Below, in pieces: positions 40,225 to 48,979 of a stretch of 49,644 nt of DNA. Location of the stretch: the NCBI GenBank assembly GCA_001802375.1, contig MGXK01000151.1, positions 1 to 49,644 of the forward strand, read 5' to 3'. Position numbers and translations under genes: made by a program. How positions within the stretch are numbered: the stretch's first letter is position 1; every line of letters begins with the position of its first letter. This DNA comes from Gammaproteobacteria bacterium RBG_16_51_14. Lineage in GTDB: Bacteria; Pseudomonadota; Gammaproteobacteria; Eutrophobiales; Eutrophobiaceae. The notes under the pieces are model-generated. The model did no database searches. It saw only the letters and a list, made by a program, of their open reading frames with translations, and was not told the DNA's origin.

Positions 40225-40626
40225 AAGGGGTCACCTCTACACATAGAAAACGGGAGTACCCGTATGGCTACTCCCGTTGTTTCGGATTAGGTAAATTGTA
40301 CTTGAGTCAGTCGTCCGCTGTCCATGTTCTGAAAATATCTGGATTCGTGTCTGAGAGCCCGTATTCCTTGCCATGTTTGTGCCATATCACAAATCGGACG
40401 AGGGTACCCCCTGGTGAGGCAGGGCTGCAACCGTTAAATATGTTCGTTGTGTGCAGGGATGACAACACAAGTCTGGTTTTTCAGCCACATGAATCACATT
40501 TTTTTACATTCATTGGCTAAATCATTGATTTAAACATATTCTATGTTTTGATTTAATCGTAAACAACACGGAATCTGGTGCTAATCTGATGCTAATCATT
40601 ATGAATGCTCCGGAAATTTGCCATTC
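40225..40626. other. Divergent region carA / kinase gene
   Basis: About 400 bases without a supported ORF, holding the carAB promoter side with the 40249-40278 hairpin, and near the kinase start a tandem TGCTAATC (40579-40586 and 40590-40597, 11-bp period) in an AT-rich stretch. No clear -35/-10 pair was found for the kinase gene. Confidence 0.4.
40249..40278 (-). promoter_or_regulatory. Hairpin in carA leader
   Basis: Perfect 10-bp inverted repeat, AACGGGAGTA (40249-40258) with TACTCCCGTT (40269-40278), 10-nt loop. On the carA (minus) strand the stem ends CCCGTTTTC, a GC-rich stem with a four-T run, shortly before the ribosome site of carA. It could be a weak attenuator for carAB or a terminator for transcripts arriving from the right. 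Function is inferred. Confidence 0.5.
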
Positions 40627-42381
40627 ATGCACCATCTGGAATCTGTTCCTGTGAGAAAGAAGAAACTACATATCAATTCATTGAAACCAGGCTATAAACT
40701 CCACTGGTATGAGATCATCAGTATCCTTGGAGAGGGTGGATTTGGCATCACCTACCTTGCCCGTGATGTCAATCTGATGCATGAGGTTGCCATCAAGGAA
40801 TATTTCCCCAGAAATATGGTCATGCGGGAGGAAAATGGACTTGTTCATCCCGTTAATAACGAACAATATCCACGATACCACTGGGGGCTGGAACGCTTCC
40901 TGGAGGAAGGACGCACCCTTGGGCAATTTAAACACCCTAACATTGTCCGTGTCCGTAATGTTTTCGAGGAAAACAATACGGCCTATATGGTGATGGATTA
41001 CGAACTCGGCGAAAGTTTCCAGGAGATCCTGAACCGCCGCAAGACACTTGATGAAGAAGACATCAAGACAATCATCTTTCCAATTATTGACGGGATGAAA
41101 GTGGTTCATGCCGCCGGTTTTATTCACCGGGATATTAAACCGGCTAATATCTTTCTCCGCGTCGATGGGGATCCCGTGCTCCTGGATTTTGGTTCTGCGC
41201 GCACCTCATTTGAAGAAAACAAGGCATCTCTTACCAGCATTTTTTCGCGTGGCTATGCACCCATTGAACAATACCATTCGACAGAAGATACACAGGGACC
41301 ATGGACTGATATTTATGCCCTTGGGGCAACTATTTACCGCACTATCGTTGGTGTTGCACCCTCCGATGCAATTGATCGAAGTGCTGCAATCGCACAGATT
41401 GCCAGGGATACCTACGTCTCGGTAGTGGAGGTCGCAAGGGGAAGATACTCAAATGAATTACTGGAAGCAGTTGACTATGCACTGCAATTCAGACAACAGA
41501 ACCGTCCACAAACAGTATCTGAATGGCGTTCAGCCTTTGATGTTGTAAAGGAAGCCAGCAGTGCAGACTCCGGACAGCATGATGTCAAGGCAGAAACTGA
41601 ATCCAGAGATTGGATCGAATCCTGTCAGAAGGCGGCTGAGTCAGGTGATACCAATGCCCAGTCTTCACTCGGTTTCATTTATGCCAGAGGTGCTGGAACT
41701 GAAAAAGATAACACCAAAGCCGTCAAATGGTACCGCATGGCAGCGGAACAGGGACATCGTAATTCCCAATACAACCTCGCTGTCATGTATGCCAAGGGAA
41801 GAGGCGTTGAACAGAACTACACAGAGGCATTCAAATGGTACAAACGGGCAGCGGAACAGGGGGATGCCACTTCACAGGCAATCTTGGGCATGATGTGTGC
41901 AAAGGGAATCGGGACAGAAAAAGACGATAAGGCCGCGATAAACTGGTATCACAAGGCCGCAGTACAGGGACATGTCATCGCCCAGTTTAGTCTGGCGAAG
42001 ATGTTTGCCAGGGGAAGGGGGGTGCCAATCGATGAACAGGAAGGGTTTGCATGGTACCTCAGGGCAGCCGAACAGGGGCATACCGGCGCCCAGATAAACC
42101 TGGCATTCATGTACGGGAGAGGCCAGGGTGTGGCACGGAACGACACAGAAGCATTCCACTGGTTCCGTAAAGCGGCTGAACAGGGACACCCGAACGCTCA
42201 ATACAACCTTGGTATAATCTATGCCAAGGGCAGGGGTATCACAAAAAACATTGATGAAGCCAAAAAATGGTTTGGTAAGGCCGCTGCACAGGGTGATAAA
42301 AATGCAGAACGTATACTTCGTAAACTCAAACAGCAGCTGGCAACGCAAGCTGAACCCGGGGAAAGGAAACAAACCGGGTAA
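40627..42381 (+). CDS. Ser/Thr protein kinase with C-terminal Sel1 repeats
   Basis: 584 aa from ATG at 40627 (a TTG at 40618 would add three residues; no strong ribosome site for either). Hanks-type kinase domain about 25-300: Gly loop LGEGGFGITYLA, ATP-binding Lys in VAIKEYF, catalytic FIHRDIKPANIFL, DFG in LLDFGSAR, and a GYAPIEQY activation segment typical of bacterial kinases of this kind. After a polar linker (about 310-325), six Sel1 repeats and a partial seventh (pattern W-Y-x-x-A-A-E-Q-G-H-x-x-A-Q-x-x-L, split over about 330-570) form a solenoid for protein binding. No membrane helix, so cytoplasmic. Targets unknown. Confidence 0.92.
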   Translation: MHHLESVPVRKKKLHINSLKPGYKLHWYEIISILGEGGFGITYLARDVNLMHEVAIKEYFPRNMVMREENGLVHPVNNEQYPRYHWGLERFLEEGRTLGQFKHPNIVRVRNVFEENNTAYMVMDYELGESFQEILNRRKTLDEEDIKTIIFPIIDGMKVVHAAGFIHRDIKPANIFLRVDGDPVLLDFGSARTSFEENKASLTSIFSRGYAPIEQYHSTEDTQGPWTDIYALGATIYRTIVGVAPSDAIDRSAAIAQIARDTYVSVVEVARGRYSNELLEAVDYALQFRQQNRPQTVSEWRSAFDVVKEASSADSGQHDVKAETESRDWIESCQKAAESGDTNAQSSLGFIYARGAGTEKDNTKAVKWYRMAAEQGHRNSQYNLAVMYAKGRGVEQNYTEAFKWYKRAAEQGDATSQAILGMMCAKGIGTEKDDKAAINWYHKAAVQGHVIAQFSLAKMFARGRGVPIDEQEGFAWYLRAAEQGHTGAQINLAFMYGRGQGVARNDTEAFHWFRKAAEQGHPNAQYNLGIIYAKGRGITKNIDEAKKWFGKAAAQGDKNAERILRKLKQQLATQAEPGERKQTG

Positions 42382-42494: not shown

Positions 42495-43856
42495 TCACTC
42501 AGGTTTCTGTCGTGTCACAGGCAGCCTCAATTCAGCACGAAGACCTCCAGTCCCTGCCTCACCTAATGTAAGCGTTCCGCTGTACAGGCCAACAATAGTA
42601 TTAACGATACTGAGTCCTAAACCACTCCCCGCTTGCATTTCATCATGGCGTATGCCGCGCCTGATCACTTCCTCTCTGTATGAGGATGGAATACCGGGCC
42701 CATCATCCTCAATAACAATAATGATATCCTGTTTACAAGCAACGACATCGACTGTGACGGTATGTCGGGCCCATTTGCAAGCATTGTCCAGGAGATTGCC
42801 GAGCATCTCCTCCAGGTCTTCAGTATCAACACGTACAGAAATGCCGTCCAGTTGATTTAACCGGATATCAATTTCCCGGTTCTTGTAAAGCACACCCAGT
42901 GAGAACTTCAGGTCTTCTGCAACGCGATTCAAGTCAGAAACTGCGCCGAGAACATTGGTTGCCCCTGCAATACGGGCCTTGTGGAGATGGTAATTCACAC
43001 TATCGATAGCAACACGTAACTGATGCCGCATGATATTCCCGCACTCGCCGTTCATGCCTTCGACTTCATTAGCCAGCACCGCCAACGGGTTCTTGAGCGC
43101 GTGCGCGAGGTTTCCGACCTGGGTTCTTGCCCGTTCCAGCAGGGCCTTGTTGAAATCAAGCAGACTGTTTAACTCTGTGACGAGAGGACGGACCTCCATC
43201 GGGAAATCGTCAGGCAAACGTTTTTTATTACCTGAACGAATATCGGACAGGGCCAGTTGAATCCTTCTCAAAGGCCTGAGGCCAAAGAAAATCTGGAACC
43301 AGACCAGCCCCAACAGGAAAATTGCCAGGATAGACAGGATAAAGGCAAGACGGTATGAGAAACGGTAAACATCTGATGTGATATCCGAAATCGGCCCTGC
43401 TGCAAGGAAGATATAGGGTTGGTGTGCACGGGGGAGACCGATAATACGTTCGTACATATAGAGCGTTTGACCTTGCGGGCCTTGCCCTTGAAAGAAGCGT
43501 GAACTCATCTCAATATTACGGGAAGGAAGTTCAAAGGCAAACGTTCCTGAAGAGGATGAGCGATGCAGGATATTGTCTGTCCCCGCTGACAGGATAAGCC
43601 AGTACCAGCCGGATTGAGGCCGGCGAAAGCGCGTATCGGCAGGAGTCCAGGAAAGGGTCAGCTGGCCGGATTGATCGATATCACTCGCTGCAACCAGTTC
43701 TTCCAGATGGTCGATCAGCTGATTCTCGAATCGCTTCTTGATGTGCCCATGGAAGAGGTAGACCACCAGGACGCATGTTGCCGCCAGAGTGACAATGATC
43801 CACAGGGCTGATGATAAAACCAGCCTGAGTTCCAGAGAATCATGCCGTAGTAACAT
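42495..43856 (-). CDS. Sensor histidine kinase, PhoQ-like
   Basis: 453 aa. Membrane helix about 12-36, periplasmic sensor about 37-165, second helix about 168-192, HAMP linker, then HisKA with the H-box GNLAHALKNPLAVLANE (His about 250), whose H-x-L-K-x-P-L form resembles PhoQ, and a HATPase with N-box DNACKWA, G1 EDDGPGIP and G2 GSGLGLSIV. The start overlaps the response-regulator gene by 17 bases. The signal is unknown; the divergent cytochrome genes suggest a redox, nitric-oxide/oxygen or metal cue, by inference. Confidence 0.92.
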   Translation of the reverse strand: MLLRHDSLELRLVLSSALWIIVTLAATCVLVVYLFHGHIKKRFENQLIDHLEELVAASDIDQSGQLTLSWTPADTRFRRPQSGWYWLILSAGTDNILHRSSSSGTFAFELPSRNIEMSSRFFQGQGPQGQTLYMYERIIGLPRAHQPYIFLAAGPISDITSDVYRFSYRLAFILSILAIFLLGLVWFQIFFGLRPLRRIQLALSDIRSGNKKRLPDDFPMEVRPLVTELNSLLDFNKALLERARTQVGNLAHALKNPLAVLANEVEGMNGECGNIMRHQLRVAIDSVNYHLHKARIAGATNVLGAVSDLNRVAEDLKFSLGVLYKNREIDIRLNQLDGISVRVDTEDLEEMLGNLLDNACKWARHTVTVDVVACKQDIIIVIEDDGPGIPSSYREEVIRRGIRHDEMQAGSGLGLSIVNTIVGLYSGTLTLGEAGTGGLRAELRLPVTRQKPE

Positions 43857-44511
43857 CCGCCGTCAACCGGTAACCACGCCCGCGATGTGTATGGATGTGC
43901 TGTGCTCCAATCTTGTTGCGTACACGGTTCACAAGCACTTCAATGGTGTTGGAGTCCCGATCCGTATCGTACTCGTAAATATGCTCGGCAAGTTCTGTTT
44001 TGGAGATCACTCGTTCGGGGTGATGGATGAGATAGGATAAAAGTCGATGTTCTAAAGCCGTTAATATCAGGGTTTCAGAATCCAGAAAAAACTTTCCATT
44101 CGAAGTATCCAGCTGCAATGGGCCGCATGAAAACAGGGTAGAAGCGTGTCCTGCATTTCTGCGGATCAAGGCTTCCACCCGGGCGAGGAGTTCTTCCATT
44201 GCAAACGGTTTTGACAGGTAATCATCCGCACCTGCATGCAGGCCGATGACTTTCTCACGCCAGGTATTGCGCGCAGAGAGAATAAGGACAGGAAATGTAT
44301 GTCCTTTCTTTCTCCATTGTTCCAGGGCATCAAGTCCACTGCGTCTGGGTAGCCCCAGATCCAGGATGATTGCATCGTAGGGTTCAGTCTCACCGAGAAA
44401 ATGCCCTTCCTCTCCATCATAGGCAACGTCAACAGCATATCGGGCCTCACTCAAGGCAGAGGAAACCTGCTGTGCCATATCTACATCATCCTCAAGCAGC
44501 AAAACCCGCAT
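43840..44511 (-). CDS. Response regulator, OmpR/PhoB family
   Basis: 223 aa. Receiver domain 1-115 with acidic pocket Glu7/Asp8, phosphoacceptor Asp51 (IILDLGLP), Lys in YLSKPF, and an OmpR-type winged-helix DNA-binding domain about 125-220 (LTALEHRLLSYLIHHPERVIS, read here as LTALEHRLL and HPERVISKTEL, then VRNKIG and RGRGYRL). The PhoP/QseB-like class fits the adjacent PhoQ-like kinase. Eight bases after the PepSY gene, so PepSY-regulator-kinase is one operon. Confidence 0.93.
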   Translation of the reverse strand: MRVLLLEDDVDMAQQVSSALSEARYAVDVAYDGEEGHFLGETEPYDAIILDLGLPRRSGLDALEQWRKKGHTFPVLILSARNTWREKVIGLHAGADDYLSKPFAMEELLARVEALIRRNAGHASTLFSCGPLQLDTSNGKFFLDSETLILTALEHRLLSYLIHHPERVISKTELAEHIYEYDTDRDSNTIEVLVNRVRNKIGAQHIHTHRGRGYRLTADVTTA

Positions 44512-44519
44512 CGCCCACC

Positions 44520-44867
44520 TCAGTCATCCTCATCGGACCATTGACGCCAGCTACTGCCTTGCTCGACATTCAACACCTGTAATGTGTATGCATCATATTC
44601 TATTTCGGCCACACTACCATCATCGTTCAGGACTTTCACTTCATAAATCCATGAAGTGTTATCTGTTTCGTTTTCCAATTCCACCTTCAGAATGTGCCCC
44701 TCGAAATCGGTTCTTACCTGCGCAAGCAACTCTTCCATTGTTGCGGCGCCTGCTGCTTTTGTTTGTGACTGTGAATCTTGACGATAAGGGTACTCATCCC
44801 CTGCTACGGTTCTGGCAATAAAGAGCAGAAATAAAGCAATACATAAAATGGCTGTCAACTGTTGCAT
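44520..44867 (-). CDS. Exported PepSY-domain protein
   Basis: 115 aa. Signal peptide (about 1-22, cut near TVAG) and a PepSY domain (about 45-105: MEELLAQVRTDFEGHILKVELE, quoted as EELLAQV and GHILKVELE, then YEVKVLNDDGS and EIEYDAYT). PepSY proteins next to two-component systems and b-type cytochromes are common in proteobacteria and are thought to modulate envelope sensors or proteases. The C-terminal tail is acidic. It is first in the operon with the regulator and kinase, divergent from the b561 gene. Confidence 0.85.
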   Translation of the reverse strand: MQQLTAILCIALFLLFIARTVAGDEYPYRQDSQSQTKAAGAATMEELLAQVRTDFEGHILKVELENETDNTSWIYEVKVLNDDGSVAEIEYDAYTLQVLNVEQGSSWRQWSDEDD

Positions 44868-45006: not shown

Positions 45007-46137
45007 ATGACCAAAACCTATTCAGCAAAAGAGCAAGGTGCTACCAAGGTATGGGATTTGCCGACGAGGCTTTTCCATTGGGGACTGGTCGCTGTTGTTA
45101 CTGGTGCGGCCATTACCGGATTCATTGAACCGGAATGGTGGCTCTCCATTCATGTGTGGTTTGGATACTGTGTCCTCTCCCTCATTTTGTTTCGCCTCAT
45201 CTGGGGATTTACAGGATCCCGATACAGCCGGTTTTCATCATTTCTGTATTCTCGAGGTGAAACTTTTGAGTTTATGCATAATCTCGTCCGGGGGAAACCG
45301 CCTCATTATCCTGGGCACAATCCGGCCGCTGCCATTATGATTTTCGCACTATTGGCAATCCTGACAGGACTGGTGCTCAGTGGTCTGCTGGCATTGGGTG
45401 GAATTGAAAATCAGGGGCCTTTCGCCAGACTGGTTCCCTACTGGATCGGTGAAGGGTTTGAAGAAATCCATGAAGTCATGGCCTTTATACTCCTGTTTCT
45501 CCTTGGTGGTCATCTCCTGGGTGTTATTGTCGAAAGTCATCTTAGGTCTGAAAACCTTGTCAAATCCATGATCACCGGGAAGAAGACTGTTTCGAGTGTT
45601 ACTGCTGCACAACCTGTTAAATGGTCGACCTCTCTTTCCGGCATCACACTAATCGCTGTCAGTGTCACTGTTGTTCTGATCAGCGCCTCGGCCCTGAGCG
45701 CAGCTAACTTGAATTTTTCATTTCCGGACTCTGTGGCAGGGACACTCTATGAAAAGGAATGCGGGGATTGTCATCATGCTTATCATCCGAGTCTGCTGCC
45801 GGAATCGAGTTGGTCCGGGATGATGGCTGGTCTGGAGAATCACTTCGGAGAAGACGCCTCTCTTGATGCAGTGACAATATCGGCACTGAATCATTTTATT
45901 GAGGTAACCAGTGCGGACCACGGATACACCAAGGCAGCCAATCTTTTTCGCACGGTTGCCCCAAACGACCCACAACGTATTACGTCTACACCTGTGTGGA
46001 AAAATATCCATGACGATATTTCCGACAACGAATTTCGCCGCAAGGGTGTAGGTGGACGGACGAATTGTAAAGGCTGTCATCGTGATGCACTACAGGGCTG
46101 TTTCGCCGAACGAAATATTCAGTTACCGGAGGATTGA
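45007..46137 (+). CDS. Cytochrome b561 fused to a dihaem cytochrome c (DHC) domain
   Basis: 376 aa. ATG at 45007 chosen because AAGGAG lies seven bases upstream; the longer open frame to 44848 has no conserved sequence. Part 1 (about 10-220): Ni/Fe-hydrogenase-type b561 with about four to five helices and haem-ligand His residues in the helix regions (LPTRLFHWG, SIHVWFGY, IHEVMAF, LLGGHLLG). A further helix at about 215-238, then a periplasmic C-terminal DHC domain (about 240-376) with two c-type haem motifs CGDCH and CKGCH. Role inferred: quinol oxidation in the membrane with direct transfer to periplasmic haem. The stop overlaps the next ribosome region. Confidence 0.88.
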   Translation: MTKTYSAKEQGATKVWDLPTRLFHWGLVAVVTGAAITGFIEPEWWLSIHVWFGYCVLSLILFRLIWGFTGSRYSRFSSFLYSRGETFEFMHNLVRGKPPHYPGHNPAAAIMIFALLAILTGLVLSGLLALGGIENQGPFARLVPYWIGEGFEEIHEVMAFILLFLLGGHLLGVIVESHLRSENLVKSMITGKKTVSSVTAAQPVKWSTSLSGITLIAVSVTVVLISASALSAANLNFSFPDSVAGTLYEKECGDCHHAYHPSLLPESSWSGMMAGLENHFGEDASLDAVTISALNHFIEVTSADHGYTKAANLFRTVAPNDPQRITSTPVWKNIHDDISDNEFRRKGVGGRTNCKGCHRDALQGCFAERNIQLPED

Positions 46138-46139
46138 CC

Positions 46140-46556
46140 ATGGAAAAGAAGATAGTCGTTATTCTGGCATTAATAAACCTGCCAATTACGGGCGCACTGG
46201 CAGAATCACAAAATATTGATGTACTTGGGCAATATGAATTACTGGCACGCAAGCATTCTTCAGTCTTTACCGGGTTCTCTGCACCGCGGGGAGAAACCCT
46301 TTTCAGGGAAACTTATGAAGGGGGAAATTCTGACACTCCTTCCTGCACATCCTGTCACTCAACATCCCCCCATGAGGCCGGTAAAACACGTGCCGGAAAG
46401 AAAATTGACCCAATGGCATTGTCCAAGACACCCGATCGTTACGCTGATTTCAAGAAAACAGAAAAGTGGTTTTACCGAAACTGTCGCAGTGTCATGGGGC
46501 GTGAATGTACAACGGCAGAAAAAGGTGACTTTATTACGTTTATGACCGGGAAATAG
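46140..46556 (+). CDS. SHP-type monohaem cytochrome c (DUF1924)
   Basis: 138 aa. Signal peptide 1-22 (cut near ALA), one CTSCH haem motif at about 75, and the SHP/DUF1924 pattern RGETLFRETYEGG and CRSVMGRECTTAEKGDFI. The Rhodobacter sphaeroides haem protein (SHP) binds oxygen and NO at a high-spin haem and is reduced by DHC. ATG at 46140 is preceded by GGAGG; the alternative TTG six bases earlier overlaps it. Three bases after the b561-DHC stop, so coupled. Confidence 0.88.
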   Translation: MEKKIVVILALINLPITGALAESQNIDVLGQYELLARKHSSVFTGFSAPRGETLFRETYEGGNSDTPSCTSCHSTSPHEAGKTRAGKKIDPMALSKTPDRYADFKKTEKWFYRNCRSVMGRECTTAEKGDFITFMTGK

Positions 46557-46585
46557 CATGAATACCAAATAACAGGAGAGACAGA

Positions 46586-47065
46586 ATGAGACACATAAAA
46601 TTACTTGCCATCGTTATTCAATGCGTAATCGTACCCTCCGTTTTCGCTGACAGTGATCGTTTTCCGGCAGTTACTGATGATGTAACCAGAAAGGAATGCG
46701 GTGCCTGTCACATGACATTCCAGCCACAACTGCTCCCTGCAAGATCATGGGCAGCCATCATGGGCAATCTGAACAATCACTTTGGTGAAGATGCGGGCCT
46801 GGATCAGGAAACAACCGATTATATTGAAGAATACCTGGTGAAGAATGCTGCTGATACTCGAAGGAACGGTTTTCGGGATTACGGTGTATTACAGGGAATT
46901 AAGAATAGCCAGACTCCCATTCGAATTACCGATCTCCCCTACTGGATACATGAGCATACGGGAGAATTATCTCCCACCGTATGGAAGCGCACTGATATTG
47001 GTACTAAAGCAAACTGCCTTGCATGCCACAGCGACGCCGACCGGGGATACTACGAAGACGATTGA
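46586..47065 (+). CDS. Dihaem cytochrome c (DHC), free-standing
   Basis: 159 aa periplasmic protein: signal peptide about 1-21 (cut near VFA), haem motifs CGACH (about 38-42) and CLACH (about 144-148). It is a paralogue of the DHC domain fused to b561: KECGACHMTFQPQLLPARSW against KECGDCHHAYHPSLLPESSW, and NHFGEDAGLDQET against NHFGEDASLDAVT. In Rhodobacter and Shewanella DHC donates electrons to SHP. ACAGGAGAGA precedes the ATG. Last gene of b561-SHP-DHC. Confidence 0.9.
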   Translation: MRHIKLLAIVIQCVIVPSVFADSDRFPAVTDDVTRKECGACHMTFQPQLLPARSWAAIMGNLNNHFGEDAGLDQETTDYIEEYLVKNAADTRRNGFRDYGVLQGIKNSQTPIRITDLPYWIHEHTGELSPTVWKRTDIGTKANCLACHSDADRGYYEDD

Positions 47066-48352: not shown

Positions 48353-48979
48353 TCATGGATATGCACCAAGCCCCTTTAACATACTGATTGCCGGTTGGTA
48401 ATTCTGTTTGGCAGCCATGCGTAGCATCCTGACCCCCATATCATATTGTCGTTGATCACCACTTTTACGATATGAATTAATTCCCCACATCCCCAATACA
48501 TACTGTGCATCCACAAGTCCTTTTTTTGCCCCTTTCACCAGTAACGCCTGGCCTTCAGCAACAGTCCTCCCAAGACCTTCACTGTTGGCTATATATGCCG
48601 CACCAAGCAGGAAATCGGCAAATGGATGATGCTTTTTGCTCGCTCGCTGCAACCACATAATTGCCTCTTTGGACTGATCAAGACGGTTATAGTATTCGTA
48701 GAGCAGCATCTGGGCGTAAACATTCCCGCTCAAGGCCAGTGACTTTATCGATTGTGCCGCCTCCAGGTAATTCCCTGATCCTGCTTTTTTATGGGAATCA
48801 GCAAAAACTCCGGCTTCTGCCTCTGTTGAAGTATCGATAATCTCGTCCTTAATCCGTGAGTATAGGGATGTATATCCTGTAGCATAATAAATACTCTCAG
48901 GTTGAACCGGTTCATCTGGCCTGGTTACCTGTTTATCCTCATCCTCTCCGGGTTGATTCCGGTTTTCTGTCTTCTTCAT
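48353..48979 (-). CDS. Sel1-repeat protein, cytoplasmic
   Basis: 208 aa. Charged N-terminus rich in Glu, Asp and Pro (about 1-30) with no signal peptide, then about four degenerate Sel1/TPR-like repeats (about 60-205: KEAIMWLQRASKKHHPFADF, AEGQALLVKGAKKGLVDAQY, MGVRMLRMAAKQNYQPAIS). Related in repeat type, not closely in sequence, to the Sel1 region of the kinase at 40627-42381. Possible scaffold; role unknown. Confidence 0.75.
   Translation of the reverse strand: MKKTENRNQPGEDEDKQVTRPDEPVQPESIYYATGYTSLYSRIKDEIIDTSTEAEAGVFADSHKKAGSGNYLEAAQSIKSLALSGNVYAQMLLYEYYNRLDQSKEAIMWLQRASKKHHPFADFLLGAAYIANSEGLGRTVAEGQALLVKGAKKGLVDAQYVLGMWGINSYRKSGDQRQYDMGVRMLRMAAKQNYQPAISMLKGLGAYP

What the first reader, a model, noticed from the sequence alone, without database searches (positions are those of the whole stretch)
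45007..47065. DHC occurs twice: fused to b561 and as a free protein
The b561 protein ends in a dihaem domain clearly paralogous to the free DHC two genes later, with SHP between. Electrons could pass quinol - b haem - fused DHC - free DHC - SHP, a longer wire than the three-protein scheme known from Rhodobacter. I do not know of a description of this exact set.
Basis: partly seen in the sequence, partly recalled or inferred. Interest (0 to 1): 0.6.

Follow-up and report, generated by a model that had tools for sequence, protein, structure and literature searches.

The report
Known oxygen-binding cytochrome operon (SHP)

Summary
Window 45007-47065 (+) encodes a b561-type membrane cytochrome ending in a dihaem cytochrome c domain (CytB/DHC), then SHP (DUF1924), then a free dihaem cytochrome c. 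All haem ligands are present. The novelty claim fails: the Rhodobacter sphaeroides operon used as the contrast is itself CytB/mDHC chimera - SHP - soluble DHC, in the same order, and the route quinol > CytB > mDHC > sDHC > SHP was proposed in 2010 (PMC2909971). The divergent PepSY protein, response regulator and sensor kinase match that paper's Orf1/RR/SK1 set. In my survey 33 of 80 loci from a public genome scan and 16 of 58 sampled gammaproteobacterial loci carry fused DHC + SHP + free DHC, including single-contig genomes and a Ruegeria plasmid, so misassembly is ruled out. The duplication is not local: all sampled fused DHCs fall on one side of a supported branch, and pairing the window's two copies is rejected (AU p 0.006). 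One modest twist: all three window genes group with alphaproteobacterial versions, while two relatives in the window's own family carry the unfused form, so the operon was probably acquired horizontally. Ordinary, already described.

The parts
45007..46137 (+). CytB/mDHC chimera, 376 aa: four-helix b561-type cytochrome (H24, H49, H155, H169), fifth helix about 212-230, periplasmic dihaem domain (CGDCH at 252, CKGCH at 354, likely axial H279 and H335)
   Evidence: Pfam PF01292 and PF09626; ligand conservation across 54 fused relatives
46140..46556 (+). SHP, sphaeroides haem protein, DUF1924, with signal peptide, CTSCH, and the W84/N88 and C89/C97 positions of R. sphaeroides SHP
   Evidence: Pfam PF09086; best solved relative 1dw0, E 8.1e-29; residues conserved in 111 of 112 other SHPs
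46586..47065 (+). free (soluble) dihaem cytochrome c, sDHC, with signal peptide
   Evidence: Pfam PF09626; best solved relatives 2fw5/2fwt, DHC, E 7.8e-36
44520..44867 (-). PepSY-domain protein, counterpart of 'Orf1' in the 2010 paper, divergent from the cytochrome operon
   Evidence: Pfam PF03413; same neighbour in other SHP loci
43840..44511 (-). OmpR-type response regulator
   Evidence: Pfam, NCBIfam
42495..43856 (-). PhoQ-like sensor histidine kinase, SK1 type by gene context; SGWYW motif present, RSRSLWD motif not conserved

Best explanation
This is an SHP operon of the CytB/mDHC-chimera type, as in Rhodobacter sphaeroides. Quinol is oxidised at the four-helix di-b-haem part; electrons pass to the tethered periplasmic dihaem domain, then to the free dihaem cytochrome, then to SHP, which when reduced loses its Asn ligand and binds O2 or NO. 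Its probable role is an oxygenase or NO-detoxifying reaction. The divergent Orf1-RR-SK genes probably control expression. Shown here: gene order, domains, ligands, relatives, age of the duplication. Shown in the literature for R. sphaeroides: reduction of SHP by sDHC, ligand switch, O2 binding. Inferred: quinol as donor, the order mDHC then sDHC, the physiological substrate.
For: Domains; solved relatives 1dw0 (SHP) and 2fw5/2fwt (DHC); published operon with the same order and the same proposed route; same architecture in 33 of 80 and 16 of 58 loci; annotated isolate example with PepSY/RR/kinase on Ruegeria plasmid pTHAF33_b; four b-haem His and both CxxCH plus axial His conserved; five helices with positively charged inner loops, placing the DHC domain outside.
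Against: No biochemistry for this organism. The order of transfer between the two DHCs is not established; most SHP loci in the class sample (39 of 58) show only a free DHC and an unfused CytB or none, so the fused domain is not essential to the pathway. The sensor kinase keeps only one of the two published SK1 motifs.
Confidence: 0.9

Rival explanations
1. The two DHC copies come from a recent duplication in this lineage, giving a new extended wire.
For: Both copies lie within 1 kb of each other and are 36% identical.
Against: 53 fused DHCs from several classes separate from 113 free ones by a single branch (SH-aLRT 94; 98/95 on a 52-row set); holding the window's two copies together is rejected, p-AU 0.006.
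Confidence: 0.02
2. The fusion is an assembly artefact joining a b561 gene to a DHC gene.
For: The window lies in a draft genome of 154 contigs.
Against: Uninterrupted frame; the same fusion in dozens of independent genomes, including single-contig genomes G082, G122 and G311 (loci L179, L159, L177) and a complete Ruegeria plasmid.
Confidence: 0.01
3. The two DHCs act in parallel rather than in series: the fused domain reduces SHP directly and the free DHC serves another partner or is a buffer cytochrome.
For: Many operons have only a free DHC with an unfused CytB, so a free DHC can take electrons straight from CytB; the literature reports Wolinella with a chimera and no sDHC.
Against: sDHC reduces SHP in R. 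sphaeroides (literature); the free copy is kept in nearly every chimera locus.
Confidence: 0.2

Closest known systems
Rhodobacter sphaeroides SHP operon (CytB/mDHC chimera - SHP - sDHC), PMC2909971
   Same: Same three genes, same domain fusion, same order, same SHP ligand residues
   Different: R. sphaeroides has no regulatory genes beside the operon; here Orf1-RR-SK lie divergently, as reported for Rhodospirillaceae
Rhodospirillaceae MAG NIOZ-UU42 locus (L067)
   Same: CytB/DHC - SHP - DHC with divergent Orf1-RR-SK; closest fused relative in the public genome scan (44% identity, residues 14-376)
   Different: An additional unfused CytB gene lies in between
Ruegeria sp. THAF33 plasmid pTHAF33_b (L207)
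   Same: PepSY, RR, kinase, CytB/DHC, DUF1924, diheme cytochrome c, annotated
   Different: Regulators on the same strand upstream; two PepSY genes; on a plasmid
Unfused SHP operon of relatives in the window genome's own family (L147, L148)
   Same: CytB, SHP, DHC, Orf1, RR (and SK in L148)
   Different: CytB is not fused to DHC; free DHC has a CxxxCH first haem motif; the genes fall in other branches of the trees

Membership tests
SHP operon | SHP with CxxCH, Asn88 sixth ligand, Trp84 and C89-C97 pair | tested here: met
   Alignment to 1dw0 and conservation in 111 of 112 other SHPs
SHP operon | Adjacent soluble dihaem cytochrome c | tested here: met
   PF09626, 46586-47065; 2fw5/2fwt relatives
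SHP operon | Adjacent membrane cytochrome b | tested here: met
   PF01292; four conserved His
CytB/mDHC chimera type of SHP operon | DHC domain fused to the C-terminus of CytB in addition to a free DHC | tested here: met
   paper
CytB/mDHC chimera type of SHP operon | Fused DHC belongs with other fused DHCs rather than with its own free copy | tested here: met
SK1/Orf1-regulated SHP operon | Orf1 next to RR and sensor kinase with SGVYWQ-like and RSRSLWD-like motifs | tested here: inconclusive
   Orf1-RR-SK present and SGWYW present; the second motif reads RSSSSGTF and is not met
SHP operon | Ligand switch and O2 binding on reduction | not testable with these tools
   needs spectroscopy

The most novel reading that the evidence does not exclude
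The CytB/mDHC fusion arose once, anciently, and spread with the operon, including transfer from an alphaproteobacterium into this gammaproteobacterium, against the 2010 view that the chimera arose more than once.
Probability: 0.4. Interest if true: 0.2.

Novelty: already known. Interest (0 to 1): 0.1.

Why it matters
It corrects the premise: the fused plus free DHC set is the published Rhodobacter arrangement, not an extension of it. The survey adds that the set is widespread and that fused and free DHC are two old, separately inherited lineages. That is mildly useful to anyone studying what SHP does, which remains unsettled.

Tried and rejected
A relative of the fusion in viral contigs: none confirmed. 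Local duplication: rejected by trees and AU test. Misassembly: rejected. NCBIfam hits of the free DHC to SorB and TorC are far below the curated cut-offs and were not followed. The careful version of the 166-row tree did not finish; the quick tree was used, then a careful tree on 52 rows. The fusion was not modelled, since a model without haems would not settle electron transfer. The chimeras of Rhodoferax, Campylobacter, Arcobacter and Wolinella, and R. sphaeroides' own chimera, were not in the trees, so a single origin of all fusions is not shown.

Full report
Observation. The 376-residue product of 45007-46137 matches Pfam Ni_hydr_CYTB over residues 15-191 and DHC over 248-366; 46140-46556 matches DUF1924; 46586-47065 matches DHC. 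Each gene has a plausible ribosome-binding site, and the spacings (2 bp and 29 bp) fit one transcript (read from the sequence). A whole-genome search finds no other DHC or DUF1924 gene. Among solved structures the closest relative of the DUF1924 protein is 1dw0, which I know as R. sphaeroides SHP (the record itself says only 'cytochrome c'); the closest of the free DHC is 2fw5/2fwt, DHC.

Anatomy. The fused protein has five predicted helices. The first four carry the His residues expected of a two-haem b561-type quinol oxidoreductase (H24, H49, H155, H169; His in every one of 54 fused relatives where the position is aligned), with positively charged loops on the inner side. The fifth helix delivers the DHC domain to the periplasm. 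Both CxxCH motifs of each DHC and the two likely axial His residues are present and near-invariant in relatives. SHP keeps the Trp and Asn at R. sphaeroides positions 84 and 88 and the C89-C97 pair, so it is of the oxygen-binding type, not the Asp88 type of Rhodospirillum rubrum.

Prior description. PMC2909971 (BMC Biochem 2010, 11:24) states that Rb. [quoted passage not shown] It proposes that quinol reduces CytB, which reduces mDHC and sDHC, which then reduces SHP. The paper also describes Orf1/RR/SK1 genes divergent from SHP operons in Rhodospirillaceae. The window has this set at 44867-42495, although its kinase keeps only the first of the two diagnostic motifs.

Survey. Among 80 loci from one scan of GTDB species genomes, 33 have fused DHC, SHP and free DHC; 24 of these are in the window's order and 9 have SHP-DHC first. 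The scan was seeded with fused proteins, so it is enriched for them. Among 58 loci taken around SHP/DHC matches in an even sample of the window's class, 16 have all three and 39 have SHP with only a free DHC. At least five loci occur in both sets, judged by equal contig lengths (L068/L197, L079/L200, L088/L193, L091/L169, L097/L151). In a phylum-wide sample 17 of 398 genomes besides the window's own carry a full-length fused match (counted). Ten other loci combine the chimera with an Orf1 gene. Ruegeria sp. THAF33 plasmid pTHAF33_b is an annotated isolate example with PepSY, RR, kinase, chimera, DUF1924 and diheme cytochrome c in a row.

Age of the duplication. In a tree of 166 DHC domains the 53 fused ones are separated from the 113 free ones by one branch (SH-aLRT 94, quick tree, few columns). 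A careful 52-row tree including R. sphaeroides sDHC gives 98/95 for the same split and rejects a pairing of the window's two copies with p-AU 0.006. So the fused domain is an old, separately inherited lineage. R. sphaeroides sDHC falls in the same mainly alphaproteobacterial group of free DHCs as the window's free copy (90/86).

Origin of this copy. Yet the window's fused DHC (95/85), free DHC (90/86) and SHP (98/89) all fall in groups made up mainly of Rhodospirillales and Hyphomicrobiales records, while two relatives from the window's own family (L147, L148) carry an unfused operon on distant branches. Of 24 other members of the family searched, only those two have a DHC at all. The CytB part alone does not resolve its place. 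Horizontal acquisition is the simplest reading; differential loss is not excluded.

Verdict. Real, well formed and already described; interest low. The one small addition is evidence that fused and free DHC are two ancient lineages, which bears on, but does not settle, the 2010 suggestion of multiple fusion events.

Noticed in passing
L147 and L148 (free DHC genes of G389 and G377): In two relatives from the window's family the first haem motif of the free DHC is CxxxCH (ECGGDCHMAY) instead of CxxCH; the only two such cases among 113 free DHCs examined.
   Followed up: partly
window 42495-43856: The sensor kinase lacks the RSRSLWD-like motif found in 30 of 34 other Orf1-linked kinases, while keeping SGWYW.
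   Followed up: partly
L067, L069, L089, L090: A second, unfused CytB gene lies beside the fused operon, divergent (L067, L069) or just upstream (L089, L090).
   Followed up: no
L101, from 5923: A Magnetovibrio MAG has SHP fused to CytB, the arrangement reported for Rhodospirillum rubrum.
   Followed up: no
window 40618-42381: Ser/Thr protein kinase domain followed by Sel1-like repeats, judged by eye from the translation; a second Sel1-like protein at 48353-48979 on the minus strand.
   Followed up: no
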